64,000 bases of DNA from Terriglobales bacterium (GTDB lineage Bacteria > Acidobacteriota > Terriglobia > Terriglobales > Acidobacteriaceae), in the NCBI GenBank assembly GCA_035651655.1, contig DASRFG010000023.1, forward strand, positions 186,001 through 250,000, in the 5' to 3' direction. Both the position numbers and the translations under genes were made by a program. This document shows, in pieces, positions 18,524-38,524 of the stretch. Under the pieces are notes generated by a model. The model worked only from the letters and a program-made list of their open reading frames with translations, ran no database searches and was not told where the DNA came from. Position 1 is the first letter of the stretch, and each line of letters opens with the position of its first letter.

Positions 18524-18838
18524 ATGAAAAGCCACTCCCGCCCAATCAGCTCGAATAACCCATCGGCCGGGTCGAGCCGTGCCGATCGTCACACGAAACT
18601 TCGGCTAGCGAGCGCGATTAAGGAAGCTATACGGCAGCAACAGCTTTCGCAGTCAGAAGCGGCAGCCTTGCTGGGGATTCCTCAGCCGAAGGTTTCAGCG
18701 CTGGTGAATTTTCACTTGGAAGGCTTCTCCGTGCAGCGCCTTTTTAGGGCTTTGAATGCTCTGGGCCGCGATGTCGTGATTCAGATCAGCAGCAAAAACC
18801 GGGGATCAGCAGGAAAGACATTTGTGAGCGCGACATGA
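18524..18838 (+). CDS. XRE-family (HigA-like) transcriptional regulator, 104 aa
   Basis: Residues 25-90 form a helix-turn-helix of the XRE antitoxin type: AIKEAIRQQQLSQSEAAALL, then GIPQPKVSALV (recognition helix) and FSVQRLFRALNALGRDVVI. The N-terminus is polar and variable. It lies 29 nt upstream of the radical SAM gene on the same strand, so the three genes form one operon under the palindromic operator upstream. No cognate toxin gene is present next to it; it probably regulates the operon. Confidence 0.8.
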   Translation: MKSHSRPISSNNPSAGSSRADRHTKLRLASAIKEAIRQQQLSQSEAAALLGIPQPKVSALVNFHLEGFSVQRLFRALNALGRDVVIQISSKNRGSAGKTFVSAT

Positions 18839-18867: not shown

Positions 18868-20469
18868 ATGGCAAATAAGAATATTCTCCTGATCGAGCCA
18901 GGATACAAGAACAAATACCCTCCTCTTGGTCTGATGAAGATCGCGCAATACCACGGTCCCTACGGAAAGCGGGATCGTGTCCGATTCATAAAAGGCGAGG
19001 ACCGGTCAGTGTTGACGGAAGCGTGGGACAGGGTCTACGTCACCACGCTGTTTTCATTTGAATTTGGCAGAATCTCTCAAAGCATCGATTTCGCAAAGAC
19101 CGTGGTAGGTGGTCAGACAGATAAGATCTTCGTGGGTGGTATCGCAGCTTCGTTAATGCACGACCGCTTCGTTCGGGAGGACAGATGGAGTGGGATCCGA
19201 TTCATCAAAGGCTTACTTGGTCAGCCGCCCGCGGTTTCCCTGCATCTCGATGACTTCTCGGAGGAGCTCTACTCAGAGGATCGTTCTGGCGTGTCCATCG
19301 AGGATCTTCCTCCGGACTACAGCATTCTTGATCAAATCTCCTACCGCTATCCGGTCCATGATGCTTATTTCGGCTACTCCTCCAGGGGCTGTATCAGAAA
19401 ATGCAGCTTTTGTGGAGTGCCGAAACTTGAGGGTGATCAGCGCGATGTTCAGCCGTTGACGTACCTAGTGAACCGGATCCGGGAGTTGTACGGGGAGAAG
19501 AAAGATCTGGTTCTGATGGACAACAATGTCGTTGCCTCCGGACGCTTTAAGGAAATTATCGCTGAGATCAGGGACCTAGGATTCCAGCGAGGCGCACAAC
19601 TGAAGCGCGGAAGAGCTCCGGTTCAGCGTCGGGTTGACTTTAATCAAGGCGTCGACGCGCGCATCCTCTGTAAGGACAAAATCTTTCTGCAGGAACTGTC
19701 GTCAATCTGTATCAAGCCGCTGCGCATTGCATTCGATCATCTCGGTGTGCGGAAGCCATACGAAACATCGGTGCGTATGGCCTACGAATTCGGACTGACG
19801 GAGCTGTCGAATTACATGCTCTACAACTTTCACGATACTCCTGCCGACCTCTACGAACGCATGGCGTTGAACGTCAGCCTGAACGAGCAACTCGGCATCC
19901 GAATTTGGTCATTTCCCATGCGCTATCAACCGACAGACCTGCCCGACCGGTCCCATGTGGGTGAGCATTGGCGCAGATACCAGCTCCGGTCGATGCAATT
20001 AATCTTGCAGGCGACACATGGGGTTGTGAGTGGAGCGCCTACGTTCTTCAAGCGCGCATTTGGTGATTCGGCCGAAGCATTTGGAGCGCTGCTACTCCGG
20101 CCCCACCATTACATCTTCAACCGCGAATGGTACGAACATCTCGACGGTCGAGCTGAATTTGAAGAGTATAGCCGCGTTTTTTGTCGGCTCAGTAATTCAC
20201 AGCGAATCGAATTGTTGAGACTTCTCTCGTCTTGCGCGCCTAGGCATATTAAGATGCTCAAGCCTGCTGATTCCCAGTTGAAACGAGTCATCCCGTACTA
20301 CATTCAATTGTCAAAGGCTAAAGAAGCGGAAATTTGGGCGAAACAAAAAGCGGCTACAACAGACCCGTATGCTCAGATCCCCGATGACGAACGCGTCGAG
20401 GACGCGGGGCTTAACGATCCAGTGCTTTTGAATGTAGATCCATCCGCAATGGCAGGAGCGATCCAATGA
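18868..20469 (+). CDS. B12-binding-type radical SAM protein, 533 aa
   Basis: The radical SAM motif CxxxCxxC is in SSRGCIRKCSFCGVPK (about residue 175), preceded by a Rossmann-like N-terminal region (LLIEPGYKNKYPPLGLMKIA) like the B12-binding domain of that superfamily. The middle part has the VLMDNNVVASG and RVDFNQGVDARIL strands of the TIM barrel. The C-terminal 130 residues are unusual and charged. Substrate is unknown. It ends inside the start of the GHKL gene (ATGA overlap, 20466-20469), so the two proteins are translationally coupled and probably act together. Confidence 0.85.
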   Translation: MANKNILLIEPGYKNKYPPLGLMKIAQYHGPYGKRDRVRFIKGEDRSVLTEAWDRVYVTTLFSFEFGRISQSIDFAKTVVGGQTDKIFVGGIAASLMHDRFVREDRWSGIRFIKGLLGQPPAVSLHLDDFSEELYSEDRSGVSIEDLPPDYSILDQISYRYPVHDAYFGYSSRGCIRKCSFCGVPKLEGDQRDVQPLTYLVNRIRELYGEKKDLVLMDNNVVASGRFKEIIAEIRDLGFQRGAQLKRGRAPVQRRVDFNQGVDARILCKDKIFLQELSSICIKPLRIAFDHLGVRKPYETSVRMAYEFGLTELSNYMLYNFHDTPADLYERMALNVSLNEQLGIRIWSFPMRYQPTDLPDRSHVGEHWRRYQLRSMQLILQATHGVVSGAPTFFKRAFGDSAEAFGALLLRPHHYIFNREWYEHLDGRAEFEEYSRVFCRLSNSQRIELLRLLSSCAPRHIKMLKPADSQLKRVIPYYIQLSKAKEAEIWAKQKAATTDPYAQIPDDERVEDAGLNDPVLLNVDPSAMAGAIQ

Positions 20470-22013
20470 GTGCGAGTCAGCCAATTCTAGTCTCAATAAA
20501 AAGCAATTGGGAGACCATCGTCGAGCGTCCAATTGTAGGCAAAGACGTTTTGGAACTGTTGAGCAGTTCCATGTACGTTAATCCGCTAGCGATCTACCGC
20601 GAATATGTCCAAAATGCATCCGACTCAATCGAGGAAGCAATTGCACTCGGTTTGCTCAGTCCCCGCGAAACTGGCAGAGTGGATATCAATGTTGACGCAG
20701 GCAAGCGGACTGTTCGGATTCGCGACAATGGCGCCGGTATTGAGAAAGGGGCGTTCACCAAAACACTTGTTGCATTGGGAGCAAGTCGAAAACGAGGAAC
20801 CAAGGCTCGTGGTTTTCGTGGTGTCGGGCGCCTTGCCGGGCTCGGTTATTGTCGTGAATTAGTTTTTCGCTCTCTCGCGGATGGCGAGCACGAGATTAGC
20901 GAAATGAGATGGGACTGCCAGAGGCTTAAGACGATTCTGCGGGACGTGAGCTTCAAAGGCGACGTTGAAGAACTGATCAAAGAAGTAGTGAGGGTGCAGC
21001 GTCGTGCCGTTACGGAACGCGGGCACTTCTTCGAGGTGGAACTATCGGGGATCGTGCGTCATGGCGACGACCGCCTTATGAACTCAGAAGCAATACGAGA
21101 TTACCTCTCACAGGTCGCACCTGTTCCGTTCTCACCCTCTTTCACGTTTGCGAAGCAGATCGAAGAAGAAATGCGCCAGGAGGTGAATTTAGGAACCGTC
21201 CGAATTTACCTCAATCAGGAAGAGCAGCCGCTATTCCGACCTCACCGAAATGGGTTCGAAGCCAGGAAGGGAGTTACGGATCAATTTCTTGGTGTCCGGT
21301 TCTTCGAAATCAAGAGTAACGAGGGAGGCCTGGCTGCGAAAGGGTGGGTCTTAGATCACGGCTATTTCGGCGCCATCGACAGTTTGGCATCTATCAAAGG
21401 ACTTCGCTTGCGGAGCGGTAACATGCAGGTCGGTGAAGGCGATGTTTTGGAAGAGTTATTCAACGAACCGCGTTTCAATGCCTGGGTTGTTGGTGAGTTT
21501 CACGTCTTGGACGATCGAATCTTGCCGAATGGTCGTCGTGATCACTTTGAGCAGAACGTGCATTTCAACAATCTCTTAGGCCAGATTCGGCCGATAGCCC
21601 AAGACCTCAGCCGGCGGTGCCGACAAAGCTCCATACGCAGGAATGTCATTCGCCAATTTGAAATGCTGTCAGAGCAGGTGGTACATAACCTGGCAGTCAT
21701 GAGGCAAGCTGCCATAAGCCAAGCGGATCGCAAGAAACTTCACAGAGACACCGTGAGAGATGTGGGACGTATCGAGAAGGTTGCAGACCACTCTGTTCTC
21801 CAATCAGCGCAAAAAAAACAAATGTGGCGTACACTCTCTCGCTACAAACAACAATTGCTCCATGCGGACCATCGTCGGCATCATAAGGCTCTGGCCCGGA
21901 TGGATGAGCGAGAAAAGGAAGTTCTCACGCGCGTATGTTCGCTCATTTACGAATGTTCTGCTAACAAGGTGTTTGCGAAGCAGCTCATTGATCGGATTCT
22001 TGCACGGCTATAG
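20466..22013 (+). CDS. GHKL (Hsp90-like) ATPase, 515 aa
   Basis: The ATP-binding domain has the N box EYVQNASDSIEEA (residues 46-58), G1 box RDNGAGI (86-92) and G2 box GFRGVGRLAGLGY (116-128), the fold of Hsp90/HtpG, MutL and histidine kinases. It lacks histidine-kinase phosphorylation motifs and the standard HtpG C-terminus. The C-terminal 140 residues are basic and helical (RRRQ and KKL-rich), possibly DNA- or RNA-binding. It overlaps the radical SAM gene by 4 nt. A radical-SAM partner for a GHKL ATPase is unusual; function is unknown, perhaps a conformational switch for defence. Confidence 0.82.
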   Translation: MSASQPILVSIKSNWETIVERPIVGKDVLELLSSSMYVNPLAIYREYVQNASDSIEEAIALGLLSPRETGRVDINVDAGKRTVRIRDNGAGIEKGAFTKTLVALGASRKRGTKARGFRGVGRLAGLGYCRELVFRSLADGEHEISEMRWDCQRLKTILRDVSFKGDVEELIKEVVRVQRRAVTERGHFFEVELSGIVRHGDDRLMNSEAIRDYLSQVAPVPFSPSFTFAKQIEEEMRQEVNLGTVRIYLNQEEQPLFRPHRNGFEARKGVTDQFLGVRFFEIKSNEGGLAAKGWVLDHGYFGAIDSLASIKGLRLRSGNMQVGEGDVLEELFNEPRFNAWVVGEFHVLDDRILPNGRRDHFEQNVHFNNLLGQIRPIAQDLSRRCRQSSIRRNVIRQFEMLSEQVVHNLAVMRQAAISQADRKKLHRDTVRDVGRIEKVADHSVLQSAQKKQMWRTLSRYKQQLLHADHRRHHKALARMDEREKEVLTRVCSLIYECSANKVFAKQLIDRILARL

Positions 22014-22103: not shown

Positions 22104-22883
22104 TCAGAAATCATCAGTAGCACAGAGCTGGCCGGTAGCTATGTCAAAATATCTAATTTCTGCATCGGTGACGAATCTTGACAACTCCGTGCTCCCGCTC
22201 GTAACAGAGTATCCATAAAGCCCCATTGGCGCACCGTCGCGATATTTGACGGCTCCGAAGCACCGCACTGCAAGTTCGGACTGTATTCCGTTTAGCGACA
22301 GGGCTTTGAAGAGAGTCATAGTTGGGTGCGCGCGCCGAAAAACGCTCTTCACAAGGTTTGTGTCGCTGTCGTCAACTCCGAGGACAGCGAATTCTCCCCC
22401 GAAATGCTCGCGAACTCTATCCAATCCTGGTCTCGGGACTATGTGGCTCGTGATGATAAGGCAGTCGCCCTCGCGAATAATCTCGTTTTGAAAAAGATCG
22501 GCAAATTGCTGGTCGTAATCGCTAAATGCGCAAATCCCCGGCAGATCGATAAAAAAAATATGCGGGAGGTCACAGGTGCGTTGGTGGGAAAAGATCGTTG
22601 CGCACTGCAACGTGATCTTGAGTCCACTCGCTTCAAGCTGAATTGCGCGTTGTTGCGCAAGCTTATATCGCGCGGGATCTATTTCGTAAGACCAGACTAT
22701 GCTCGTGAGTTTAGGATCGACAAAACGGAGGCTCTCGATATCCTTCAGCTCTGTCCCCCCTAACGTGACATAACAATACTCCGCTGTCGGCGTTCCATAG
22801 AGCCGCAACCAACGGCACAGAAGCAGATGCAAAGCGGCATATTTTTGTGGCCCATATTGAAGGCGCCCCGATGCTGTCGGCAT
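22104..22883 (-). CDS. Rossmann/methyltransferase-fold-like protein, 259 aa
   Basis: The protein has a Rossmann-like layout: a glycine-containing turn (YVTLGGTELKDIE, residues 38-50), an acidic strand end (SYEIDP, 65-70), and IFFIDLPG (109-116) at the place of a methyltransferase motif IV, then GDCLIITSH (139-147). The canonical SAM glycine loop is weak, so catalysis is uncertain. It is the last gene of a four-gene operon, starting 4 nt after the MORC-like GHKL gene. It may be a partner like the three-Cys-motif partner proteins of DUF5131, but I am not sure of that. Confidence 0.6.
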   Translation of the reverse strand: MPTASGRLQYGPQKYAALHLLLCRWLRLYGTPTAEYCYVTLGGTELKDIESLRFVDPKLTSIVWSYEIDPARYKLAQQRAIQLEASGLKITLQCATIFSHQRTCDLPHIFFIDLPGICAFSDYDQQFADLFQNEIIREGDCLIITSHIVPRPGLDRVREHFGGEFAVLGVDDSDTNLVKSVFRRAHPTMTLFKALSLNGIQSELAVRCFGAVKYRDGAPMGLYGYSVTSGSTELSRFVTDAEIRYFDIATGQLCATDDF

Positions 22884-22887
22884 GCGG

Positions 22888-24519
22888 TTAAGCCCTCTTT
22901 GCCCTCTTGGTATCCAGGAGGCTGAGCAGATATTCCTTTGCCTTCTCGCTCAGTGCTCTTTTGGTAGGACCTGCGTCCAGGGCCCCTGACACTTCAAAGA
23001 ACGCTGCCAGCTGCCTTGCTTCGTCGATGGTGACGTTAATGCTAAACGAAATGCTTATGTCCTTCTTAGTTTTCTTCGTTGCGGCCAAGTGAGGGCGATA
23101 GATTCCCTCCGGCAGTTTCTGCCCACGCTTCTTGGTGGCATCGATCTGGACGGAGCTAGAATCACCAAACGAGAGCTCGTGGGTCTTCGTATCGACCAGC
23201 GTGTGAGGTACACTAATTGTTTTTGTCACTTCACCGCTGCCAAGTCGGCTTATTTGCTGAAACGCGTCGCTCCAGTTGTCAAAGAGATTCTTGATGGCGG
23301 GATGAGTACGAATCAGATCAATGATTTCACGATCGTAGTTTAAGTGCCGTTTGTGCGTATCCCATGGAATGAAGACGTTTGGACCAAGAATGTTCACCCA
23401 TCCGCGAGCAAGATTAACTGCGTTGCCTTTGGGCAACTGTTCATAAAACAATCTCTCGTCCCGGTACTTGAAGAGCCGATTGTTGCCATACAAATCGAAT
23501 CCGGGACCCACGTCATCCTTGGCGGAGGTAGTCACGCGACAACCGATGACGACCTCGATCGTCACTTTGTGTTTTCGGCCTTGGTAGTCGAGTTCGGTCT
23601 CGAAGTCAACCCGCTGGGGTCGGATATCCACTTTGTCGTTCTTCGTTCCCGAGAAGTCGTACCGGGTGTTAAGAGCCGGTTCGATTTTCTTGCCGCGCTT
23701 TGGAAAATATACGTTTATCTTTCCTTCTCTTGCCATGAGGAGACCATAGGTGTTTTGTATGTCGTGGGAAATCTTGTCGAGCTCGCGCGGCTGTTGGTAC
23801 CAACAGGCACCAACAGGCTCAGGACGAAGTTGCATCAGATACCGTGTTTGGCCCCGCTGCATATCGCCGCCGTCCTTGAGGCGGAAATACGGAAACTTGT
23901 ACTGATCGACATCTATCAACCATTTCTCATCCAAATGGACTGCCACCGCACTGTCCCCCGTTTCGGCTGGATTCCAAAAATGTGTGGACACGTTTACTGC
24001 CGTTGCGAGTCGAAATATAGCCTTCTTCCCACCCGTCTTGTAGCTACCAATACTGGCAACGAGCGCGTCGGTTTCGCTGCGGCCAGGAACTACTAAGTTT
24101 TCGAGTTTTTCTGCAGGTACACCTCCAGCGTTGTCCTCATACGAAAGCTGACCCGTATCCGAGTCGATGTCGATGTAGACATTGAGTTCTGGTGCAGATT
24201 TGTCGGGATACCTAGTGCGCCGCCGGTTCCAGGCATCGATACTGTTATCGATCAGTTCGAGAAGAGCTTCGGACCTGTCGAGGTCGCGCCACGCTCCCAG
24301 TACAACCTCTTTGTTCGGAGGAGCGCCTGCTTCGACCGGAGTCGCTTCCGCCTGTTGCGGCTGCCACAGCGAATTCTCCCGAGCGATACGCGCCCGAAAT
24401 GAACGTTCGTCCTCATCGGACGGTTTGTAGTCGACGACAATCTGGTCGAGTGCTGTTTCGCGCAAAATGTTGAGCTTCTCGACATGCTTAAGACTGTTCC
24501 AATCTGCTCGTTTATTCAT
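22888..24519 (-). CDS. GHKL ATPase of MutL/MORC-like type, 543 aa
   Basis: I place the start at 24519 (MNKRADWNSL), since the upstream extension lies inside the HerA gene. The ATP-binding motifs are ELIDNSIDAW (residues 88-97, N box), YEDNAGGVP (127-135, G1) and GSYKTGGKKAIFR (158-170, G2), typical of the MutL/MORC/Hsp90 superfamily. The middle part (about 180-440) fits an S5-like transducer domain, with DIRPQRVDFE and WVNILGPNVFIPWDTHKRHLNYDREI as conserved-looking blocks. The start overlaps the HerA stop by 8 nt, so translation is coupled. Related bacterial MORC-like ATPases occur in restriction-type operons. Confidence 0.85.
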   Translation of the reverse strand: MNKRADWNSLKHVEKLNILRETALDQIVVDYKPSDEDERSFRARIARENSLWQPQQAEATPVEAGAPPNKEVVLGAWRDLDRSEALLELIDNSIDAWNRRRTRYPDKSAPELNVYIDIDSDTGQLSYEDNAGGVPAEKLENLVVPGRSETDALVASIGSYKTGGKKAIFRLATAVNVSTHFWNPAETGDSAVAVHLDEKWLIDVDQYKFPYFRLKDGGDMQRGQTRYLMQLRPEPVGACWYQQPRELDKISHDIQNTYGLLMAREGKINVYFPKRGKKIEPALNTRYDFSGTKNDKVDIRPQRVDFETELDYQGRKHKVTIEVVIGCRVTTSAKDDVGPGFDLYGNNRLFKYRDERLFYEQLPKGNAVNLARGWVNILGPNVFIPWDTHKRHLNYDREIIDLIRTHPAIKNLFDNWSDAFQQISRLGSGEVTKTISVPHTLVDTKTHELSFGDSSSVQIDATKKRGQKLPEGIYRPHLAATKKTKKDISISFSINVTIDEARQLAAFFEVSGALDAGPTKRALSEKAKEYLLSLLDTKRAKRA

Positions 24520-25897
24520 TAAGGCTCCCCAGATTCGCGGCTCGTGGCATTGCTGGACCCTTTGCATCATCAAAACTCAGCATGCGTGTAACATGCCCGA
24601 TGTTAGCGATGACTACGTACGCGGATCCCCGCGGCAGCGTACCAAGCGTTTTTGAAATGTACTCCTGCGAGTGACCGTTCTTGACCTTGCGATGCAACTC
24701 TCGCGAAACATGACCTGTATTGTCGGCTGTTTGGAAAACAATCTTTGTCGCCGTGTTCGCGAAGGCAACGGTACTAAAATCTTCAGGCTGCTGCGACGCT
24801 AGGATGACGCCGAGCCCGAACTTGCGACCCTCCCGCAAAATCTTTTCAACCGGAGATCCAGGACCAAACGCAAGTTTGTGCGCCTCGTCCAACACTACAA
24901 AGCATCTGAGTGGCGCCGGGCCGAGCACCTCAAAATACCGAATGAGGCTCCAAAGCAGGAATTCGGTCACCGCTCTCTCGACCGAGGCTTCGAGTCCTCC
25001 GAGCTGCAAAATCCACACTTCGTTACGTCGTTCAAGCAGATCAGACCAGCTGAGCGCATGGCCGGTTTTGCGAAAGGTATTGAAAAAAAATAAAGTCGAA
25101 ACGTGCGGCCCTGCGGAGGCCGCAGCCCGTCGAGTCGTCGCATCTTTAGCCGCAGTAAGTTCTGACACCTTTTGTTCCAGATCACGAAATGGTGGAGGAC
25201 ACTGAGCCCATGAACGAGGGTTATCGGCAACAATGCCGCTGTCGGAAAGCAGCTCGACGACCGCTCGGCGCAGCAACGCATGCTGCTGAACGCCCAGCTT
25301 CGGATAGACGCGCAGGAATGTGTCGGCGACACGCTGCGCGACTGTGGCAGGTCCATGCGTATCCACCGGAAAGATTTGTAGCGGATTAATCGCGATACCG
25401 TCGCGAGTGAGCTGAAATTCTACATTCCTCATGTCTTCGCGGAACTCTTTCGGTGCATGTTGAAGTGAAAATCCTTGACCGTAGTCAAATACGACGGAAG
25501 GAATCCCGGCCTTGGCAAGTTCAAGTACTAAGCGTGAGGCTGTGTATGTTTTTCCGGAGCCACTCTCGCCCAAGATAAGCACATGGGGATTGGTGGACTC
25601 GTAAAGCGGCCAAGTCACATTTGTTGAGGACTCGATATCAATCCCGAGCGGGATTGATTTAGACCGCGCTACCTCTCCATGTGTCGTTGCAGCTGGTATC
25701 GACGTCGGATTGTGCGATGACATCGGCGAATCCGCGTTTCGAACGCCTTCGTAGCGTCCCATCGTCCGGTGTGCTGAAATTGCTGAAACCTGGTTCGGGG
25801 TCACTCCGACGAGCCGGGCAATTGTATCTCGGTCTTTCCCTTCGTCGAGGAGCCGGTTGATGAGCGAGCGCTGATCGCTTGTAAGCTTGCCTTTCAT
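24512..25897 (-). CDS. HerA/FtsK-type ATPase with N-terminal HTH, 461 aa
   Basis: The start at 25897 is set by an ATGA overlap with the upstream gene. Residues 1-45 form a sigma-/resolvase-type helix-turn-helix (KLTSDQRSLINRLLDEG and onward to VTPNQVSAISAH). The ATPase has Walker A GESGSGKTYT (110-119), Walker B CFVVLDEAHKL (332-342) and the downstream RGSAYVVIANIGHVTRML block. It resembles HerA-like DNA translocases of the DUF87 type, found with NurA and in phage-defence operons. A fused HTH is uncommon and may target a DNA site. Confidence 0.88.
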   Translation of the reverse strand: MKGKLTSDQRSLINRLLDEGKDRDTIARLVGVTPNQVSAISAHRTMGRYEGVRNADSPMSSHNPTSIPAATTHGEVARSKSIPLGIDIESSTNVTWPLYESTNPHVLILGESGSGKTYTASRLVLELAKAGIPSVVFDYGQGFSLQHAPKEFREDMRNVEFQLTRDGIAINPLQIFPVDTHGPATVAQRVADTFLRVYPKLGVQQHALLRRAVVELLSDSGIVADNPRSWAQCPPPFRDLEQKVSELTAAKDATTRRAAASAGPHVSTLFFFNTFRKTGHALSWSDLLERRNEVWILQLGGLEASVERAVTEFLLWSLIRYFEVLGPAPLRCFVVLDEAHKLAFGPGSPVEKILREGRKFGLGVILASQQPEDFSTVAFANTATKIVFQTADNTGHVSRELHRKVKNGHSQEYISKTLGTLPRGSAYVVIANIGHVTRMLSFDDAKGPAMPRAANLGSLNE

Positions 25898-26286
25898 GAA
25901 GCCTTCGATCGAAGTCGTCGCGCAGCCTGAAGGACTGAACGCAAACATTCGTTTATCACCGTCGTTCTGTCGCGGACGAGACCAACTTCCTCAGCGGCAA
26001 GAAACTCGTCCCACAATGCACGATCAACTCGAAAGATTACGGAAAGCCGGTCTGATACCTTGCTGCCGACAGGTCTACCGACTTTTCGGTGAGGCATGCT
26101 ATGCCAGGCACGTCGCGCCGCTAATGAAAGATTCGTCAGGTCATCCGCTCCGAAGGATACTTCTTTGGCTTCATTCGTCAGAGAAACCAGCCATCTACCT
26201 GCCTCTCTGCGCAGCAAGGTTCCGCGTTGGCCTGCGAAGGGACCTCCCTTAATTCGTACCTTGTCGCGTTTGGCGTGCTCGAGCAC
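25894..26286 (-). CDS. KOW-domain plus ribbon-helix-helix-like protein, 130 aa
   Basis: The N-terminal half (residues 1-50) reads RDKVRIKGGPFAGQRGTLL, the signature of a KOW motif as found in NusG and ribosomal L24 proteins. The C-terminal half (RLSVIFRVDRALWDEFLAAEEV, then DRTTVINECLRSVL) fits a ribbon-helix-helix DNA-binding domain. The protein is thus a two-domain nucleic-acid binder heading the operon, and its stop overlaps the HerA start by ATGA. Operon regulation or a role in sensing transcription is inference. Confidence 0.6.
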   Translation of the reverse strand: MLEHAKRDKVRIKGGPFAGQRGTLLRREAGRWLVSLTNEAKEVSFGADDLTNLSLAARRAWHSMPHRKVGRPVGSKVSDRLSVIFRVDRALWDEFLAAEEVGLVRDRTTVINECLRSVLQAARRLRSKAS

Positions 26287-26369
26287 TGAGTAGATACAGC
26301 CTACGGCTACAAGTAAATATTTGCAATAAATAAATTAGTGTTATCATTAAATGAGGCGGTCTGACCAAA
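26287..26369. promoter_or_regulatory. AT-rich divergent intergenic region between two cargo genes
   Basis: The 83 bases between the KOW/RHH gene (minus) and the DUF5131 gene (plus) must carry both promoters. They are strikingly AT-rich at 26310-26352, with a TTGCAA box (26321-26326) and a TATCAT box (26342-26347), which are only 15 nt apart. No strong palindrome is visible except AAATATTT. Exact promoters are not determined. Confidence 0.3.
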
Positions 26370-27215
26370 ATGGCTGATTCCTCCAAAATTGAATGGACCG
26401 ATGCTACGTGGAACCCAGTGCGGGGTTGTACCAAAATCAGCACTGGATGCAAGCACTGTTATGCGGAGACATTCGCGGAACGCTTTCGCGGAGTAGCGGG
26501 ACATCCATACGAAAAGGGCTTTGATCTGCGGCTGGTGCCAGAAAAATTACTTGAGCCGCTGCAATGGTCCCGACCAAAGATGGTTTTCGTTAACTCGATG
26601 AGCGATCTGTTCCACGAGCGTGTTACTGATGAATACATTCTTGCAGTCAGCAAGATAATGTGCGAATCGCCTTGGCATACTTATCAAGTTCTCACCAAAC
26701 GCTCGTCGCGCTTACGAGAGCTCCTGAGCTCACAATTGACAGGAGCTGCCCGACAACGTCACGTTTGGTGGGGCGTTAGCATTGAAAATAAGGAATACGG
26801 CCTTCCAAGGTTAGAGGACCTCAAACACTCTCCCGCCGCTGTTCGTTTCCTTTCCATTGAACCCCTGCTGGAGGATCTTGGCGAACTTGATTTGAAGGGT
26901 ATTCATTGGGTCATTGTCGGTGGCGAGAGCGGTCCTGGTGCTCGGCCGATCAAAGAATCCTGGATAATCTCAATCATGGAACAATGCAAAATCGCAAATG
27001 TTCCTTTCTTCTTTAAACAGTGGGGTGGAGTCCAAAAGAGCCGTGCAGGCCGGCTACTGCAAGGACGCACATACGACGAATTTCCAAGAAGTCTGCAGCA
27101 TCCGTTACCGAGTCGAGCCGAGCGTAACGAACTGAGCACAAGATTGGCAGAAGACTTTTCTGCTCTCTATCACTTCCCGAAGCCCACGACTGAGCTTCCA
27201 TTGTTTCAATGGTGA
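26370..27215 (+). CDS. DUF5131 three-Cys-motif (phage Gp37/Gp68-like) protein, 281 aa
   Basis: The N-terminus IEWTDATWNPVRGCTKIS with C20-x6-C27-x2-C30 (GCTKISTGCKHCYAE) is the hallmark of the DUF5131 family. The rest fits too: FVNSMSDLFHE (about residue 72), YQVLTKRS, VWWGVSIEN and RFLSIEPLLEDLG, then WVIVGGESGPGARPI (about 195). The three-Cys motif resembles a radical SAM iron-sulfur site, but the enzyme reaction is unknown. Members are known beside three-Cys-motif partner genes in phages and islands. It is divergent from the HerA/GHKL operon. Confidence 0.92.
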   Translation: MADSSKIEWTDATWNPVRGCTKISTGCKHCYAETFAERFRGVAGHPYEKGFDLRLVPEKLLEPLQWSRPKMVFVNSMSDLFHERVTDEYILAVSKIMCESPWHTYQVLTKRSSRLRELLSSQLTGAARQRHVWWGVSIENKEYGLPRLEDLKHSPAAVRFLSIEPLLEDLGELDLKGIHWVIVGGESGPGARPIKESWIISIMEQCKIANVPFFFKQWGGVQKSRAGRLLQGRTYDEFPRSLQHPLPSRAERNELSTRLAEDFSALYHFPKPTTELPLFQW

Positions 27216-28554: not shown

Positions 28555-29193
28555 GTGCAGAATCCGTGGTTAGAACTGCCTTCGGCAGCTCCATACATCC
28601 TCGGTATTGACATCGAAAGCGTCAGTCGGCACAGCGAGATCAATCGACAGACCTTGCCTGAGCCATTCATCGGGAATCCTAAAACGGCGCGATTGGTTTT
28701 GCTGAGCCTCAACCCAGGTGATTCGGACGACGACATCAAAGCCCACAGCGATGTCGAGTTTAGAAAAGCGATAATCAGCAACCTCCGTCAGGAGTCGCAG
28801 GAATATCCATTCTATGGACTGAATCCGAAGTTTAATTGGACAGCGTGTGGCCGCTGGTGGCGGGCACACGTGAAGGAGTTGATCGAAATCTTAGGGTCTA
28901 AAAAAGTAGCGGAACACCTACTGGTCATTGAATGGTTTCCATATCATTCAAAACGATGGAAGCGCTTGCCTACGAGGGAGGTGTGCCCCTCGCAAAACTA
29001 CTCGTTTCAGCATGTGAAAGAGATGCTCGACAAGAAAGCAGTAATCGTTGGGATGCGTTCAAAAATGTATTGGCTGGAAGTTGACCCGCGAGTAGCCTCG
29101 GTGCCCTTCTTAAAGAACCCGCAGAACCCGTGCGTGAGCAAAAAGAATTGTGGCGAAGAATTGTTTGCTCAAATCGTGGAGGCTCTGCGGTAG
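28555..29193 (+). CDS. Hypothetical protein, 212 aa, possibly uracil-DNA-glycosylase-like fold
   Basis: A GTG start at 28555 opens a soluble protein. The motif RLVLLSLNPGDSDDD (about residue 47) resembles the GxNPG strand-turn of the uracil-DNA-glycosylase superfamily, and LLVIEWFPYHSKRW (about 122) may be a further core strand. Catalytic residues cannot be assigned. I keep the fold call as a weak guess. It is followed by an intergenic stretch of over 300 nt. Confidence 0.55.
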   Translation: MQNPWLELPSAAPYILGIDIESVSRHSEINRQTLPEPFIGNPKTARLVLLSLNPGDSDDDIKAHSDVEFRKAIISNLRQESQEYPFYGLNPKFNWTACGRWWRAHVKELIEILGSKKVAEHLLVIEWFPYHSKRWKRLPTREVCPSQNYSFQHVKEMLDKKAVIVGMRSKMYWLEVDPRVASVPFLKNPQNPCVSKKNCGEELFAQIVEALR

Positions 29194-29556: not shown

Positions 29557-29946
29557 TTACGGTTTACACGGGAACGCTTCTTTGAGTGCCTTGAAAGCTA
29601 AAACGGAGGTTGGCTGATGTAAAGTACTGGGATTATCGTTCATGTACTTTACGATTACCTTCGTGTTTTGCAGGAGCGTGTTCCCATCCGGGTAACAGAT
29701 ATCCGCCTTAAGCGACGAGCCAGACTGAGCGAGGTGATATGCACCTGCCGCAGCAGCTCCATCTACAAATCCTTTTAGCCACATTACACATGCAAGCGAA
29801 TCATAAGTGGATTTTCTGTCGTCTGGTATGGTTGAGCACTTTGCCAGAAACTCAGTGCCACTTTCGAAGGTGAAACCGCGCTGCTCTTCAGCGACAGCGA
29901 TTCCACACAGAAGCATTACCACAAGTATCAACGCTGCTGCCTTCAT
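29557..29946 (-). CDS. Rap1a/Tai-type immunity protein, 129 aa
   Basis: The product begins with a signal peptide (MKAAALILVVMLLCGIAVA) and has the cysteine pattern of the Rap1a/Tai family: C37, the LACVMWLKGFVDGAAAAG block, C in DICYPDG, the KYMNDNPSTLHQP region and a final AFPCKP. Rap1a/Tai immunity proteins neutralise type VI effectors such as amidases in the periplasm. Here no effector gene is adjacent, so it may be an orphan immunity gene. The downstream DNA-binding-type small protein is 9 nt upstream on the same strand. Confidence 0.75.
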   Translation of the reverse strand: MKAAALILVVMLLCGIAVAEEQRGFTFESGTEFLAKCSTIPDDRKSTYDSLACVMWLKGFVDGAAAAGAYHLAQSGSSLKADICYPDGNTLLQNTKVIVKYMNDNPSTLHQPTSVLAFKALKEAFPCKP

Positions 29947-30925: not shown

Positions 30926-32530
30926 GTGGTCTGTGTGACGGGTAATAAATGCATCACGGGCTGGGAGTACGCAACGTTTCTCATTCCGCGGCTGAAGGAC
31001 CAAGAATCGGTACCTGAGTGGCCGCCTGACGTATTCGGCATATGTATGGCTCTACTCATGCAATCAGGCGGTTACACGGTGGCACTCAATGACTGGCCGC
31101 CTGTTGATTCGGACGAAGACTGGGCGGAGGTGGCCTCTAACGTAGGACAGTCCTGGAGAAAAAGCTGGGCCATTGGATCAGGTGCGCCGAACGAAGTGCG
31201 AGAGCTCTGGGTCAAAATTCGACCGCACCTCGACAAATCAATCGAGGAGTTAAAGTCCGACACCAAGGGGTGCCAGATTTTGCTGCAGTTAGCAGCGTTC
31301 GCGGATTCGGCTTGTGAAGGAGTTGGACTGCCTCGGGAGGGAAAAACAACTTCCATCGATCAAAAGTTTTGGGATCATGCGGACGATCTGGTAACAAACA
31401 CTTCCAATAGCTCAAATGTGGCCGAGGAGATTCATTGTTCCCGGGCTCGCGTTCTGCCGAAGATGCGTACTCCGCAAAATGGACTCACGGTCAGATCCCT
31501 GTCTCATAATCTCGCCCTTTGCGTATCAGGTGAACTTCAGCCGAAATGGCATCTGGTTCCCAACTACCCGGATGAACAGTGCCTCAATATACTCGTTGTC
31601 CCGTGGCCATACCAAATTGACCCAGTTCAATTCGAAAAAGAATCGCCGTTTTCCACCGAGATGCGGAATATGCCGGCGAATTTCGGGTTTTTTGGATTTC
31701 GCCATACTGAGAGAGAGCCGGACCCAGTCGAACATATAACCTCATTGTTTGATCGAGCACGCCAACAGATGGGCTCCATGCACGGAGTTATTCTCCCGGA
31801 ACTTGCACTGACCCCCGAACTTTACGCTTCGTTGAGATCGGAAATTGTCGATGAGCGAGAAAGTTTTCTTATCTCCGGCGTGACAACACCGAGGACTGTC
31901 AAGACACACAGCAAGAATGAGGTTTTTTTTGATATTCCTACGCTAGAAACTATTAAGCAGGGTAAGCATCACAGGTGGAAGTTAGATCCCAACCAACTCA
32001 CCCAGTATTCCTTGGGCAGTCGCCTTCATACAGGGAAACTCTGGTGGGAGCATATAGACGTCTCGGCGCGCGAACTCACCTTCGTCTCCATGCTGCCTTG
32101 GCTGGTCGTCTGCGTCCTAATTTGCGAAGATCTTGCCCGCCCCGATCCTGTAGGCGACTTGGTGCGTGCAGTTGGACCAAACTTGGTCATTGCCCTATTA
32201 ATGGATGGCCCGCAGATTCGGCCCAGATGGTCAGCACGTTGTGCGGCTACCCTCGCCGACGATCCAGGCTGTTCTGTCCTGTGTGTTACCAGTCTTGGAA
32301 TGTCGCAGCTGAGCCATCCCGTGGAAAGTACTAGTGCGAACCGGAGCCGCTGCGTCGCTCTCTGGAAGGACGCGTTCAGCAGCAACGCCCGAGAGATTGA
32401 ACTCCCTATAGGAGCGGGCGCACTTGTTCTTTCAATATCAGAGAGTTACATAGAGCAATGGAGCGCCGACGGGCGGTCAGATTCAGGTGTGACTGGCTGC
32501 CCCTTGCTTAGTGGGGTGCGCGAACTTTAG
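30926..32530 (+). CDS. Nitrilase-fold (CN-hydrolase-like) protein with large N-terminal extension, 534 aa
   Basis: Residues about 215-510 show a carbon-nitrogen hydrolase layout: LNILVVPWP (about 220, first strand), HGVILPELAL with Glu292, HHRWKLDPNQ with Lys352, and CVLICEDLARPDP with Cys400, spaced like the Glu-Lys-Cys triad of nitrilases. Residues 1-200 are a helical domain without a known motif. GTG codons at 30926 and 30935 compete as starts; the second has AGAGG 8 nt before it. The family is linked in some phage-defence systems (for example a reverse transcriptase fused to a nitrilase domain). There is no reverse transcriptase here. It lies alone in the island. Confidence 0.65.
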   Translation: MVCVTGNKCITGWEYATFLIPRLKDQESVPEWPPDVFGICMALLMQSGGYTVALNDWPPVDSDEDWAEVASNVGQSWRKSWAIGSGAPNEVRELWVKIRPHLDKSIEELKSDTKGCQILLQLAAFADSACEGVGLPREGKTTSIDQKFWDHADDLVTNTSNSSNVAEEIHCSRARVLPKMRTPQNGLTVRSLSHNLALCVSGELQPKWHLVPNYPDEQCLNILVVPWPYQIDPVQFEKESPFSTEMRNMPANFGFFGFRHTEREPDPVEHITSLFDRARQQMGSMHGVILPELALTPELYASLRSEIVDERESFLISGVTTPRTVKTHSKNEVFFDIPTLETIKQGKHHRWKLDPNQLTQYSLGSRLHTGKLWWEHIDVSARELTFVSMLPWLVVCVLICEDLARPDPVGDLVRAVGPNLVIALLMDGPQIRPRWSARCAATLADDPGCSVLCVTSLGMSQLSHPVESTSANRSRCVALWKDAFSSNAREIELPIGAGALVLSISESYIEQWSADGRSDSGVTGCPLLSGVREL

Positions 32531-34723: not shown

Positions 34724-36166
34724 TTACACGGGTTCATACAGCAAAGCTCTTTTGGCGCCTCTTCGGGACTTCCACACGGAACCCTCGTGCTGGTCAAGTA
34801 ATGCTAGAACTTTGTTGCGGCCCATGCCTGAACGCTGCACGACCTGATTTTTTGAAAGTCCTGGGCTGCTGCTGATGATTTTCGCAATGGCATCGATTTC
34901 TTTTTGGCGATTGTTTGCTACTGATGAATCGGTGACAGTGAAGCGTCCGGCCGCGAAGTCAGTTTGGATCGAAATAGTCGTCTCGGCTGTGAACCTGTGC
35001 TTCACGCTTCGCAATTCCAGCAGGTCTTTACGTTTGACGAGCGCAAAGACCGCGTCGGCACCGCCGGCAATGTCACTGCTGCCGCGATAGGATGACGTCT
35101 CGGATTTTCCCTTGTGGTGCACCGGGAAGAGGGTCGCGCCCGCGTTTGCCAGCCTACGCAGATGTGCCATTACTTTGCTCATCTCAGAAGCATCGTTTTC
35201 GTTTTCGGCGCTATGGAAGCGGATCAGCGAGTCAAAAACGATAAATGCGCCGATCTTGGCAAATTCCAAGAGCCGTGGATCGCCAATCATGGGCGGCTCG
35301 TCTTCACACCAAGCACCCCATGGACGAAATACTCCAGGGCCCCCACAAATTGTTTGGAGCCGGTTTCGCATGAGCTGTAGTGGGTTTTCGCGGTCAAGAT
35401 AAAGGACTGGACGGCGTTCGCAGCGTCGGCCCAAGAATTCCCCGCCTTGGGCTATCGCTCTGACAATGCCCATTGCCAGCCAAGTCTTGCCTGCACCTGG
35501 TTCTCCCGCAAGCACGGTGATCGCTCGCGCTGGAATTAGGCCCTCTACCGCCCATGAAACGTCACCCGAGGAGATTTCGAACGGATCCGGAATCTGGTCA
35601 AGCGTCACGATTCGGTGTATAGAATCGGATTGGTATTCTGCTAACCGCCAGTTTATTTCAGCGAATCGCGGCGCCAATTCAGTAAGGCTGGCGCCTCCGT
35701 TGGCGTGCACCATCGCAGCTTCACAGGCGCTGGAGACGTATCTTTTGCCGGCCGCCTCGCGCACCATCTTGACATAATGCTCAATGTTCAGGGTGCGCGG
35801 CAATCCGTCTGTGAGCGATGTTAGATAAGCGATCCCGCCGACCGCCTCGACTTCATGTCGACGCGTCAGTTCTTCTCCAAGGGTGATGATGTCGATCGGT
35901 CGGCCCGATTCGGCCAACTCTCGCATCCTGCAGAAGATTCGTCGGTGCGCATCGAGAGAAAAGTTATCAGCCCGCAGCACCTCTGCCACTAGCCAAACCT
36001 CATTGTCCAAGATGACCGCGCCCAGGACCGCGCGCTCGGGATCGCTAAAAGTGAATGTCATCGTCGTGATTTTCCAGGTGAGAGTCCTTTCTTCGGCAGC
36101 GGTTGCAGGCCACTCGCGAAACCGTCCGGCACCTTGGTGTGACTCGCCTTCTATCGGCGAAGTCAT
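34724..36166 (-). CDS. DnaB-N-domain/RepA-like AAA ATPase (element replication)
   Basis: I set the start at 36166, since its ATG overlaps the stop of the excisionase-like gene (ATGA). After about 35 variable residues comes a DnaB-like N-terminal domain (DPERAVLGAVILDNEVW, then TLGEELTRR, VEAVGGIAYLTSL). A RecA-type ATPase follows, with Walker A LAGEPGAGKTWLA (about residue 208) and Walker B FIVFDSLIRFHS (about 310), then GATLFPVHHKGK and a C-terminal winged-helix-like region. It is a RepA/DnaB-type helicase likely supporting element replication. Confidence 0.82.
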   Translation of the reverse strand: MTSPIEGESHQGAGRFREWPATAAEERTLTWKITTMTFTFSDPERAVLGAVILDNEVWLVAEVLRADNFSLDAHRRIFCRMRELAESGRPIDIITLGEELTRRHEVEAVGGIAYLTSLTDGLPRTLNIEHYVKMVREAAGKRYVSSACEAAMVHANGGASLTELAPRFAEINWRLAEYQSDSIHRIVTLDQIPDPFEISSGDVSWAVEGLIPARAITVLAGEPGAGKTWLAMGIVRAIAQGGEFLGRRCERRPVLYLDRENPLQLMRNRLQTICGGPGVFRPWGAWCEDEPPMIGDPRLLEFAKIGAFIVFDSLIRFHSAENENDASEMSKVMAHLRRLANAGATLFPVHHKGKSETSSYRGSSDIAGGADAVFALVKRKDLLELRSVKHRFTAETTISIQTDFAAGRFTVTDSSVANNRQKEIDAIAKIISSSPGLSKNQVVQRSGMGRNKVLALLDQHEGSVWKSRRGAKRALLYEPV

Positions 36167-36414
36167 TGGATCTCGTTCTGTTTGCACCCATGTAGTCGAC
36201 GCGTCCGACCGTTACCTACACCTTCACGCTCGGCACGTTCCACCTCAGCCATAGGTATCAGACGCCGACCACCGATGTAGATTGTCCGCAAGTAACCATC
36301 CCGCGCGAGTCGTTTCGCTGCGTCCCGTGAAATTCCGAACATCTCGGCGAACTCGGTAAAACCTACTGCCCTTCGTCCAGCTAACCCTGTCATCATCTTC
36401 TTTCCCCTTTGCAC
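36163..36414 (-). CDS. Excisionase-type MerR/HTH DNA-binding protein, 83 aa
   Basis: The segment AVGFTEFAEMFGISRDAAKRL plus YIGGRRLIPMAEVER is the winged helix-turn-helix of excisionase-like proteins. It is small and located next to the integrase region, divergent from the CGNR-like/integrase genes. It may bind attachment sites or the 36450-36480 palindrome. It overlaps the helicase gene by 4 nt. Confidence 0.78.
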   Translation of the reverse strand: MQRGKKMMTGLAGRRAVGFTEFAEMFGISRDAAKRLARDGYLRTIYIGGRRLIPMAEVERAEREGVGNGRTRRLHGCKQNEIQ

Positions 36415-36497: not shown

Positions 36498-37268
36498 ATG
36501 CCAGGTTTCGTTCTAGAGGACCGCGTGAGGAACTTCCTAAATCCGGGGAGAGTACCTCTGGAGCGGATCCGGGGGTTCCTCATTGGGCTTGCAAACGTGG
36601 AAGCCGATGATCCGAACGACACCCGTAACTTCCTTCGTCAATACGAGAACTTCTTCTTTGTGGATGATAGGTTCCGCCGTCATCAAGAAATCGTGGAGTT
36701 AATACACGGCAGGCAGCTTCCGGCAAGACCAGGAGGCCGGCTCTCGCACGACGAGAACGGCCGGTCGGTTGTTGAGGGCGTTCTGGAGGGTGAACTTTCA
36801 GACGAGCAAGCGGGCCTAGCGCGGAAGCTGATCATTGAGCGTTTTCAATCTTCGGTGACGTATGCCTGGACGGATGACGCTGCTCCACATCGTCGAGAAG
36901 ATGTCATTGCAGACGCTCTGGACTCATACGACCCCCGGGAACGGGGATGGCTAGTTCAGGAAGCTCGGTTCGCTTTTTGGCAGTGGCTGTTTGGACCACC
37001 TATGTATCCCAGCCCATTGTTCCCCTCGCTTGAGTATAGGAAGTGCCCTCCTAACTATCGATTTGAGCAAGCAATGCTGTACCTGATGCGAAATCTGCAC
37101 TTAGCAAAGGAGTGTGCAAATAGGTTTTGCTCTAAGGACCGTTTTTTCTTGGCCGCTCGTGCCAATCGTGTGTACTGCAGTAACGAATGCCATCTACCAG
37201 CGAAGCGGGCATCGGAGCTTCGGTCTTACCATAAAAACAAAAATAAATGGAAACGAAAGGAGACGTGA
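36498..37268 (+). CDS. CGNR-like zinc-finger protein, 256 aa
   Basis: The C-terminal segment CANRFCSKDRFFLAARANRV then YCSNECHLPAKRASEL has a C-x4-C and C-x3-C zinc ligand set like CGNR/zf-CGNR proteins, followed by a basic tail. The N-terminal 190 residues are a variable helical domain with no motif. The start MPGFVLEDRV is preceded by a GGGGAG. Its stop overlaps the integrase start (TGATG), so both are made together; a regulatory role on integration is inferred. Confidence 0.6.
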   Translation: MPGFVLEDRVRNFLNPGRVPLERIRGFLIGLANVEADDPNDTRNFLRQYENFFFVDDRFRRHQEIVELIHGRQLPARPGGRLSHDENGRSVVEGVLEGELSDEQAGLARKLIIERFQSSVTYAWTDDAAPHRREDVIADALDSYDPRERGWLVQEARFAFWQWLFGPPMYPSPLFPSLEYRKCPPNYRFEQAMLYLMRNLHLAKECANRFCSKDRFFLAARANRVYCSNECHLPAKRASELRSYHKNKNKWKRKET

Positions 37269-38449
37269 TGAGCAAAAGACGTCAGGATGGGCTGTATCGG
37301 CGCGGCTACATTTTTTGTTTTCGTTACAAGGACAGCGACGCTGACTGGAAGGAGAAATCCACTGGCACTGGCGATCGCGTCGAGGCGAAAGCTTTTAAGG
37401 GTCAGTTTCTTGAGGATCTAAAACAAGGTCGCCTGCCCACGGATAAGGCACAATGGACCGTGGAGCAAGCCTGTATGCGTTGGGTTGAGCAGCACGCCGC
37501 TCACCTGAAATCACAAAAGGCAAGGTCCAATGAGCAGTCGTATCTCCGCCAATTGGTACGCCGCTTGGGATCCAGAAAAGTGAAATCTATCACGCTGGAC
37601 GTTCTTAAGGACTACCAGCGCGATCGCCGTAGGGAGGTAAAAGAGAGGCCCATTAACCTTGAAATGGGAATCTTGGTGAACGTGCTCAAGGAATCGAACC
37701 TGTGGCGTGGACCTCTGCTGAACTACAGACGGCTGAGCGAGCCAGAAAGCGAGGTAGGCGAGGCTCTCGCCCTCGACCAACTCAAGAGGCTTGAGACCGT
37801 TGCAGCCAGCAACGAACTATGGCAGGTAGCGTATTGTGCAGAAGTGCTGGCCGCCAACACCGGAATGCGTGGCGGTGAGATAAAGAAGTTGCAGCTAGGC
37901 GCGATCGACTTGGAGCGGCGCCGTGTCCGCGTCACAAGAAAAAGCACCAAGACGAATGCTGGAGCCCGCTGGGTTGAACTAAACCAAGCCGCCACAGCAG
38001 CAGTCGTACTGCTCTACAGGCGCGCTGAGCTGCTGGGCGCTGCAGAACCTGAACACTTCCTATTACCGGCAGATCTGTCGCGCCACACGAAGGCAAGTGA
38101 CCCACTGAGGGGGCATCATGGCTTTGATCCTACCCGCCACCAAATATCGTGGGACACAGCCTGGAGGCGAGTACGCAGGGCGGCGGGACTCCCAAATCTT
38201 CGTTTTCACAGTCTTAGGCATACGTTCATCACGAGCATGGCGGAGATAGGAACTCCTCTGCAGGTAACGCAAGCCATTGTCGGCCATATGTCCGATGCCA
38301 TTACGAAACACTACACACACATCTCAGACAAAGTGTCGCGCTCGGCCGTGGAAATGCTGGACAAAATTCGCGAACGTAGCAACTTTGTGGATACTTTTGC
38401 GGATGTTCCGCTACCGATCGAAACTATATCAGCTAAGCTGTTGCAATGA
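37268..38449 (+). CDS. Tyrosine recombinase (integrase) of the island
   Basis: The start at 37268 has GGAG upstream and overlaps the CGNR-like stop; the upstream in-frame Met at 37247 lies inside that gene. The SAM-like N-terminal domain (residues 1-150) is followed by the catalytic domain with Arg201 (NTGMRGGE), HSLRHTF (His314, Arg317), IVGHMSD (His340) and Tyr349 in KHYTH, the complete R-H-R-H-Y set. Its stop is 1 nt before the tRNA-Gly 3' end, the usual position for an integrase targeting this tRNA. It catalyses insertion and, with the excisionase-like protein, excision. Confidence 0.95.
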   Translation: MSKRRQDGLYRRGYIFCFRYKDSDADWKEKSTGTGDRVEAKAFKGQFLEDLKQGRLPTDKAQWTVEQACMRWVEQHAAHLKSQKARSNEQSYLRQLVRRLGSRKVKSITLDVLKDYQRDRRREVKERPINLEMGILVNVLKESNLWRGPLLNYRRLSEPESEVGEALALDQLKRLETVAASNELWQVAYCAEVLAANTGMRGGEIKKLQLGAIDLERRRVRVTRKSTKTNAGARWVELNQAATAAVVLLYRRAELLGAAEPEHFLLPADLSRHTKASDPLRGHHGFDPTRHQISWDTAWRRVRRAAGLPNLRFHSLRHTFITSMAEIGTPLQVTQAIVGHMSDAITKHYTHISDKVSRSAVEMLDKIRERSNFVDTFADVPLPIETISAKLLQ

Positions 38450-38498
38450 TGGAGCGGGAGACGGGGATCGAACCCGCGACATCCAGCTTGGGAAGCTG
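38450..38498 (-). repeat. attR-like 49-bp copy within intact tRNA-Gly
   Basis: This is the right copy of the direct repeat, part of the functional tRNA gene. Integration kept the tRNA intact here and left only the 3' part at the left end, as is standard for tRNA-targeting islands. Confidence 0.92.
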
Positions 38499-38524
38499 GC
38501 GTTCTACCGCTGAACTACTCCCGC
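38450..38524 (-). tRNA. tRNA-Gly (anticodon CCC), attachment site of the island
   Basis: On the minus strand the gene starts GCGGGAG at 38524 and pairs with CTCCCGC at 38454-38460, followed by discriminator T and CCA (38452-38450). The anticodon stem is CCAGC/GCTGG with loop TTCCCAA, giving anticodon CCC for glycine. The T arm holds the GGTTCGATCC consensus. The 3' 49 nt are duplicated at 17762-17810. The cloverleaf was worked out by eye. Confidence 0.93.

What the first reader, a model, noticed from the sequence alone, without database searches (positions are those of the whole stretch)
22104..26286. Four-gene KOW/RHH-HerA-MORC-like GHKL-Rossmann operon as a candidate defence system
The genes overlap by 4, 8 and then lie 4 nt apart, so they should be made in fixed amounts. 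The parts are a nucleic-acid binder, an HTH-fused HerA translocase, a MutL/MORC-type ATPase and a methyltransferase-fold-like protein. GHKL and HerA ATPases are known from restriction-type and phage-defence operons, but I do not know a system with this exact composition.
Basis: partly seen in the sequence, partly recalled or inferred. Interest (0 to 1): 0.82.

Follow-up and report, generated by a model that had tools for sequence, protein, structure and literature searches.

The report
Mobile seven-gene candidate anti-invader cassette
A soil bacterium carries, on a small mobile DNA island, seven genes that travel as one block between otherwise unrelated genome locations and resemble the DNA-pump systems that bacteria use against invading DNA, but their function is untested.

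Summary
The four-gene operon is real, with the overlaps described, but it is part of a larger co-conserved unit. In three Terriglobia genomes (window, G022, G442) the order is the same: F-E, facing D-C-B-A, then G beyond A. F is a radical-SAM protein, E and C are GHKL ATPases, B is a DndH-like HerA ATPase, A is KOW plus RHH-like, D is Rossmann-like and G is DUF5131. A contig-end locus keeps the C end, D, E and F. Flanking proteins are unrelated between the full loci, so the block moves as a unit; in the window it lies on a 20.7-kb tRNA-Gly island. An AT-rich box between A and G occurs in the three full loci and in none of 18 others scanned. F-E is a wider core: E follows F in 19 of 20 loci viewed, the other being cut by a contig end, with interchangeable partner modules. 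The C-D pair is replaced by another GHKL-Rossmann-like pair in G022 and G442; B-C-D occurs without F, E, A or G in 20 kb of G007. No described system with this make-up was found in my searches. Best reading: a HerA-centred anti-invader module coupled to a radical-SAM/GHKL core; function is inferred.

The parts
25894..26286 (-). A: KOW domain, GRPxGS (AT-hook-like) linker, RHH-like C-terminus; likely DNA-binding regulator or adaptor
   Evidence: KOW 21.9 bits; aligned with L063 and L066 copies, 62% and 45%; RHH and AT-hook read by eye
24512..25897 (-). B: HerA/FtsK-type ATPase with N-terminal HTH-like region (long frame begins at 25948)
   Evidence: DUF87 37.5 bits; DndH 155.1 bits, mad8 86.9 bits; PDB DptH 7es4 E 2.3e-9; Walker A, Walker B and SQQP invariant in 4 of 4 aligned copies
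22888..24519 (-). C: GHKL ATPase (long frame begins at 24573)
   Evidence: HATPase_c_3 25.6 bits; N-box ELIDNSIDA; C-terminal 53 residues 53% identical in G453
22104..22883 (-). D: Rossmann/methyltransferase-like protein without a recognisable SAM motif I
   Evidence: 61% identical copy in L011; no family hits; weak O-methyltransferase hit for the joint profile, E 0.043
20466..22013 (+). E: Hsp90-like GHKL ATPase, overlaps F by 4 nt, convergent with D
   Evidence: HATPase_c_3 34.6 bits; profile hits HtpG E 4.6e-8; adjacent to F in 19 of 20 loci
18868..20469 (+). F: radical-SAM protein with cobalamin-fold-like N-terminus, CxxxCxxC present, no DxHxxG
   Evidence: AlphaFold model pLDDT 75.9 and Foldseek hits to MiaB, AprD4, CysS, TokK
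26370..27215 (+). G: DUF5131 (phage Gp37/Gp68; radical-SAM-like), divergent from A
   Evidence: PF07505 325.2 bits; PDC-M41B 342.2 bits; 67% and 64% identical copies in L063 and L066
26314..26338 (-). AT-rich box between A and G, candidate operator
   Evidence: found in window, L063 and L066 and in none of 18 other loci scanned at up to 5 mismatches
18524..18838 (+). HTH_37 regulator-like gene just upstream of F
   Evidence: PF13744 78 bits
17762..17810 (+). left copy of the tRNA-Gly end (att site)
   Evidence: direct repeat with 38450-38498
38450..38524 (-). tRNA-Gly(ccc), integration site; holds the right repeat copy
37247..38449 (+). tyrosine integrase next to the tRNA
   Evidence: Phage_integrase 85 bits

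Best explanation
A seven-gene cassette carried on an integrative island, acting against invading DNA. F-E is the core: a radical-SAM enzyme and an Hsp90-like GHKL ATPase made together. A-B-C-D-G is one of several interchangeable modules attached to that core. Proposed mechanism: A (KOW/RHH-like) binds DNA, probably the box between A and G, and regulates A-D and G; B, a DndH-like HerA ATPase, encircles and pumps DNA; C, a GHKL ATPase, opens and closes on ATP and couples target recognition to D; D, Rossmann-like, acts on or reads the DNA; F, perhaps with G, makes a radical-dependent modification that marks self or is the thing sensed. Shown: the genes, their order, co-conservation, mobility of the block, intact ATPase and cluster motifs. 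Inferred: DNA as substrate, the division of labour, and defence as the purpose.
For: Same gene order in three genomes with unrelated flanks. B family found in 4 of 399 class genomes, three of them inside this cassette and the fourth a 1716-residue DndH-like frame. B nearest to DndH and mad8 profiles and to the DptH structure. G matches PADLOC phage-defence candidates. F-E co-occurs elsewhere with DGQHR/DndB-DpdB-like, SNF2 helicase (ZorD/DpdE-like), ParB-like and PIN modules. Location on a tRNA-Gly island, on alphaproteobacterial plasmids and on viral contigs. Published precedent for HerA/FtsK anti-invader modules (PMC10853773, sections 21, 22, 26).
Against: No nuclease was recognised in the cassette. 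PADLOC has no hit for A, C, D, E or F. D has no assignable family and its structure prediction failed (pLDDT 34.2). D and its analogue in G022/G442 are not linked by hhalign, nor C and C' by blastp. The window genome has no DGQHR protein, so the modification idea lacks a partner here. Neighbouring defence genes could give guilt by association only. No phage or plasmid challenge exists.
Confidence: 0.45

Rival explanations
1. The cassette serves the mobile element itself: replication, segregation or transfer of the island, with HerA as a DNA pump and GHKL as a DNA clamp, rather than defence.
For: Carried on islands, plasmids and viral contigs; B also hits conjugation ATPases and a terminase; F-E is present in a prophage-like contig (L021).
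Against: The partner modules (PIN, SNF2 helicase, DGQHR) are not transfer genes and vary while F-E stays; the block sits beside a separate integrase and a DnaB-like helicase in the window.
Confidence: 0.2
2. F-E makes a DNA modification, and the HerA module is its restriction arm, as in Dpd or Dnd systems but with a radical-SAM enzyme as the modifying step.
For: Small DGQHR (DndB/DpdB-like) gene in 12 of 20 F loci (families); SNF2 helicase nearest to ZorD and DpdE profiles; F model resembles MiaB, a nucleic-acid-modifying radical-SAM enzyme, but also AprD4, CysS and TokK.
Against: No DGQHR in the window genome; F fold matches are shared by enzymes acting on small molecules; no modified base known.
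Confidence: 0.25
3. Unrelated genes gathered in an island and inherited together from a recent common ancestor; the shared order is history, not function.
For: All full copies are in one class; window and G022 are 75% identical in DNA over F-E.
Against: Flanks share no protein match at 1e-4; B is only 45% identical between window and the others while order is kept; C-D is exchanged as a pair in place; the A-G box is kept.
Confidence: 0.1

Closest known systems
HerA/FtsK capture systems including DndFGH (PMC10853773)
   Same: DndH-like HerA ATPase with DNA-binding partners on mobile DNA
   Different: B is a separate protein of about 461-478 residues; no DndF, DndG, REase, Orc/CDC6 or D5 helicase partner found; GHKL, Rossmann-like and radical-SAM partners instead
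BREX-Related Capture system (PMC12839542, passages seen)
   Same: HerA/FtsK joined with DNA-modification enzymes
   Different: That system has PglZ, DUF6079, DUF4007, STAND, GNAT and TGT; none hit here
MORC/paraMORC restriction systems (PMC2292703, passages seen)
   Same: GHKL ATPases of the HATPase_c_3 type next to DNA-acting enzymes
   Different: Those pair with superfamily II helicases, nucleases and DNA methylases; the word HerA does not occur in that paper
DUF5131-TcmP pair
   Same: G is a DUF5131 protein
   Different: TcmP is next to DUF5131 in the 4 plasmid loci I viewed but no TcmP-like protein was identified here
Dpd and Dnd modification systems
   Same: DGQHR proteins and SNF2 helicases accompany F-E in other loci
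   Different: No DGQHR in the window genome; no TGT or DndCDE hit among the cassette proteins

Membership tests
HerA/FtsK capture system | HerA/FtsK ATPase related to DndH | tested here: met
   DndH 155.1 bits, DptH structure 7es4 E 2.3e-9
HerA/FtsK capture system | associated DNA-binding HTH-type domain | tested here: inconclusive
   N-terminal HTH hits of B are below their cut-offs; A has a KOW hit just below its cut-off
HerA/FtsK capture system | active endonuclease partner | tested here: not met
   no nuclease family hit for A-G; D has no assignment
DndFGH | DndF, DndG and a full-length DndH of about 1700 residues | tested here: not met
   B is 461-478 residues; no DndF or DndG hits among A-G
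MADS | set of mad genes | tested here: not met
   only B hits, mad8 86.9 bits; no mad hit for A, C, D, E, F, G
MORC/paraMORC restriction system | GHKL ATPase | tested here: met
   HATPase_c_3 for C and E
MORC/paraMORC restriction system | superfamily II helicase, REase or DNA methylase in the operon | tested here: not met
   no such family hit for A-G
DUF5131-TcmP pair | TcmP next to DUF5131 | tested here: not met
   D has no TcmP hit; hhalign of TcmP with D and D' shows no link, a weak test with few sequences
Dpd system | DGQHR protein DpdB | tested here: not met
   0 matches to TIGR03187 in the window genome
Dpd system | DpdA transglycosylase | not tested
   no genome-wide search for DpdA was made; none of A-G hits it in PADLOC
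anti-phage defence system | protects cells from phage or plasmid entry | not testable with these tools
   needs an experiment

The most novel reading that the evidence does not exclude
F-E is the core of an undescribed mobile system in which a radical-SAM enzyme, helped by an Hsp90-like GHKL ATPase, places a new chemical mark on DNA, and exchangeable modules (HerA-GHKL-Rossmann, PIN-GHKL, ParB-SNF2 helicase) read that mark and act on unmarked or wrongly marked invaders.
Probability: 0.22. Interest if true: 0.88.

Novelty: new variant of a known kind. Interest (0 to 1): 0.62.

Why it matters
If right, it adds a HerA-type anti-invader module that pairs with GHKL and Rossmann-like proteins instead of a recognised nuclease, and ties it to a radical-SAM/GHKL core shared by plasmids, islands and viral contigs of two phyla. 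It gives a compact set of genes in which the question whether radical-SAM chemistry is used to mark or sense foreign DNA can be tested directly.

Tried and rejected
D as a TcmP: in the 4 plasmid loci viewed, DUF5131 stands next to tcmP, so I asked whether D is TcmP in disguise; hhalign gave probability 0.5% with D and 0.1% with D'. Rejected, though with few sequences.

D and D' as one family: hhalign probability 0.3%, blastp E 0.03 and 0.36. They share position and a pattern read by eye in the joint alignment; not claimed as homologues. D' with the analogous protein of L064 is better (probability 49.7%, E 1.7e-4), and with L081 26% identity, 68.2 bits.

Structure of D: AlphaFold with two sequences gave pLDDT 34.2, not used.

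C as the same family as C': no significant blastp match. A hit of C in a DISARM locus of Microvirga (GHKL beside a putative O-methyltransferase) is weak (52 bits) and only suggestive.

B, C, D, F elsewhere: genome-contig scan with C, none; with D, only the G453 contig; viral contigs with B and D', none; plasmids with D and D', none. Phylum-wide search for B, 7 of 237 genomes: the window, five frames of 1665-1888 residues and one of 525. The last (G470, L093) shows only the B-like protein among my reference families in 20 kb; a PP-loop protein nearby is read by eye.

A promoter/terminator scan found no excess over shuffles (6 against 6.0; 12 against 10.1).

The radical-SAM-like gene after the G007 trio (L081) is not an F orthologue (best E 0.003) and is followed by genes that I read by eye as PhoH and YbeY, so it may be a chance neighbour.

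Full report
The observation. The four ORFs A-D are present with the stated packing: with B starting at ATG 25897 and C at ATG 24519, the overlaps are 4 and 8 nt and the C-D gap is 4 nt. A has a KOW hit just under its cut-off, B is a HerA/DUF87 ATPase whose best PADLOC model is DndH (155.1 bits) followed by mad8 (86.9 bits), C is a GHKL ATPase just over its cut-off, and D has no hit in Pfam, PADLOC or PHROGs. The best solved relative of B is DptH 7es4, E 2.3e-9.

The unit is larger. A search with D in 399 genomes of the class found one other copy (2 of 399 including the window's own). It lies on a 5,004-base contig, which search for related loci names as a Candidatus Angelobacter metagenome-assembled genome, genus placed in Terriglobia, Acidobacteriota. 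That contig holds the C end, D, then E and F convergent to them, exactly as in the window. F there is split across two frames.

F profile search: 11 of 399 class genomes at E <= 1e-40, 12 loci counting two in G022. Two of these, G022 (L063) and G442 (L066), carry all seven genes in the window's order: G | A-B-C-D | E-F. Pairwise identities of window against L063 and L066 are F 85 and 68%, E 80 and 36%, G 69 and 64%, A 62 and 48%, B 45 and 45%. C and D are different: in L063 and L066 the C slot is a GHKL protein that matches the GHKL2 proteins of plasmids (101 and 107 bits) and not C, and the D slot is a 278-281-residue protein without a blastp link to D. So the GHKL-plus-partner pair is exchanged in place.

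The block moves as a unit. Of 88 window ORFs and 38 ORFs of L063 and L066 outside the cassette (120 residues or more), no pair matched at E 1e-4, nor did L063 flanks match L066 flanks. In the window the cassette lies between two copies of the tRNA-Gly end, 20,688 bases apart, with a tyrosine integrase beside the tRNA. I read the last 49 bases of the 64-base repeat as identical.

A shared box. Between A and G, CTAATTT..ATTATTGCAAA.A.TTA-like sequence is present in window (26314-26338), L063 and L066, and in none of 18 other loci scanned at up to 5 mismatches; resampled sequence gave none. The pattern was taken from these three sites, so absence elsewhere is the informative part. In a separate test on the three intergenic stretches, 0 of 300 resamplings reached the observed 12 shared columns (the L063 stretch was cut short at the longest frame of A). 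A, with an RHH-like half, is the natural candidate to bind it; this is inference.

B is specific to the cassette here. With a profile of three copies, 4 of 399 class genomes match at 1e-30: three are the cassettes, the fourth is inside a 1716-residue frame. In a phylum draw, 7 of 237 match at 1e-25: the window, five frames of 1665-1888 residues and one of 525. One further genome, G007, holds B (37% identical), a GHKL protein and a D'-like protein in a row without F, E, A or G within the 20 kb read. So B-C-D is separable.

F-E is a wider core. I viewed 20 F loci: window, L011, ten class loci, six plasmid loci and two viral contigs. E follows F in 19; in L071 the contig ends within F. In plasmids, F (80% or more covered, 67.5-69.2% identical) and E (42.5-48.6%) occur in the same 12 records of 72,556; six of the 12 were opened. 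Partners vary: a small DGQHR protein beside F in 12 of 20 loci, a ParB-like/SNF2-helicase module in 9, PIN plus GHKL2 in 6, the HerA module in 3 and part of it in L011. DGQHR passes the TIGR03187 cut-off (142.5 against 58.85 bits); the helicase is nearest to ZorD and DpdE profiles. The window genome has no DGQHR protein.

What F is. CxxxCxxC is invariant in 9 of 9 close relatives and 21 of 21 in a wider alignment whose scan pattern itself asked for part of it. No DxHxxG was found in six copies tested. The model (pLDDT 75.9, pTM 0.72) matches MiaB (E 1.2e-9), AprD4 (1.9e-8), CysS, RimO and TokK: a radical-SAM enzyme with a cobalamin-type N-terminal domain. This does not say whether its substrate is nucleic acid or a small molecule.

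How it may work. The parts are a DNA-binding regulator or adaptor (A), a DNA pump (B), an ATP-driven clamp (C), a Rossmann-like partner (D), a second GHKL ATPase with a radical-SAM enzyme (E, F) and a DUF5131 protein (G). GHKL N-box motifs are intact in C, C' and E; Walker and sensor motifs of B are invariant in four copies. I propose interception of invading DNA by B with C-D deciding or acting, and F (perhaps G) providing a mark or a sensed product. Only anatomy, co-conservation and mobility are shown.

Known systems. Rakesh and co-workers describe HerA/FtsK capture systems and DndFGH (PMC10853773: abstract, sections 21, 22, 26 and passages seen). The BREX-related capture system also joins HerA with DNA-modification enzymes (PMC12839542, passages). 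MORC/paraMORC restriction systems pair GHKL with superfamily II helicases and nucleases (PMC2292703 and PMC8011034, passages). None of the passages seen describes HerA with GHKL, a Rossmann-like protein and radical SAM. My paper searches were made; only open-licence papers are held, and supplements could not be read, so absence from print is not established.

Verdict. A real, co-conserved, mobile seven-gene unit, larger than reported; defence plausible, mechanism open.

Noticed in passing
window 17762-38498: 20.7-kb island integrated at tRNA-Gly(ccc), with tyrosine integrase (37247-38449) and a DnaB-N/AAA_25 protein (34724-36187).
   Followed up: partly
window 28555-29193: Protein with a partial match to anti-phage DNA glycosylase Brig1 (45.6 bits against a cut-off of 230).
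   Followed up: no
window 30926-32530: Protein 32% identical (211 bits) to one beside F-E on an Agrobacterium plasmid (L019 17553-19349); by eye nitrilase-like; no Pfam, PADLOC or PHROG hit.
   Followed up: partly
window 29557-29946: Rap1a immunity-protein family member (66.1 bits) inside the island.
   Followed up: no
L064 10958-13456: Second F-E locus of G022, with a different GHKL protein and a protein matching NF047698 (40.9 bits, cut-off 200) beside F.
   Followed up: partly
L070 12440-14110: Beside F-E and a GHKL2 protein lies a 556-residue protein that by eye looks like a HerA-type ATPase, but Pfam gave no hit.
   Followed up: no
L046 6998-10824: In Marinitoga camini virus 1 an F-like radical-SAM gene lies next to genes annotated HerA and a Rad50/Mre11-associated exonuclease.
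   Followed up: no
L047 3300-6730: Unannotated faecal phage record with an E-like (27%) gene followed by an F-like (36%) gene.
   Followed up: no
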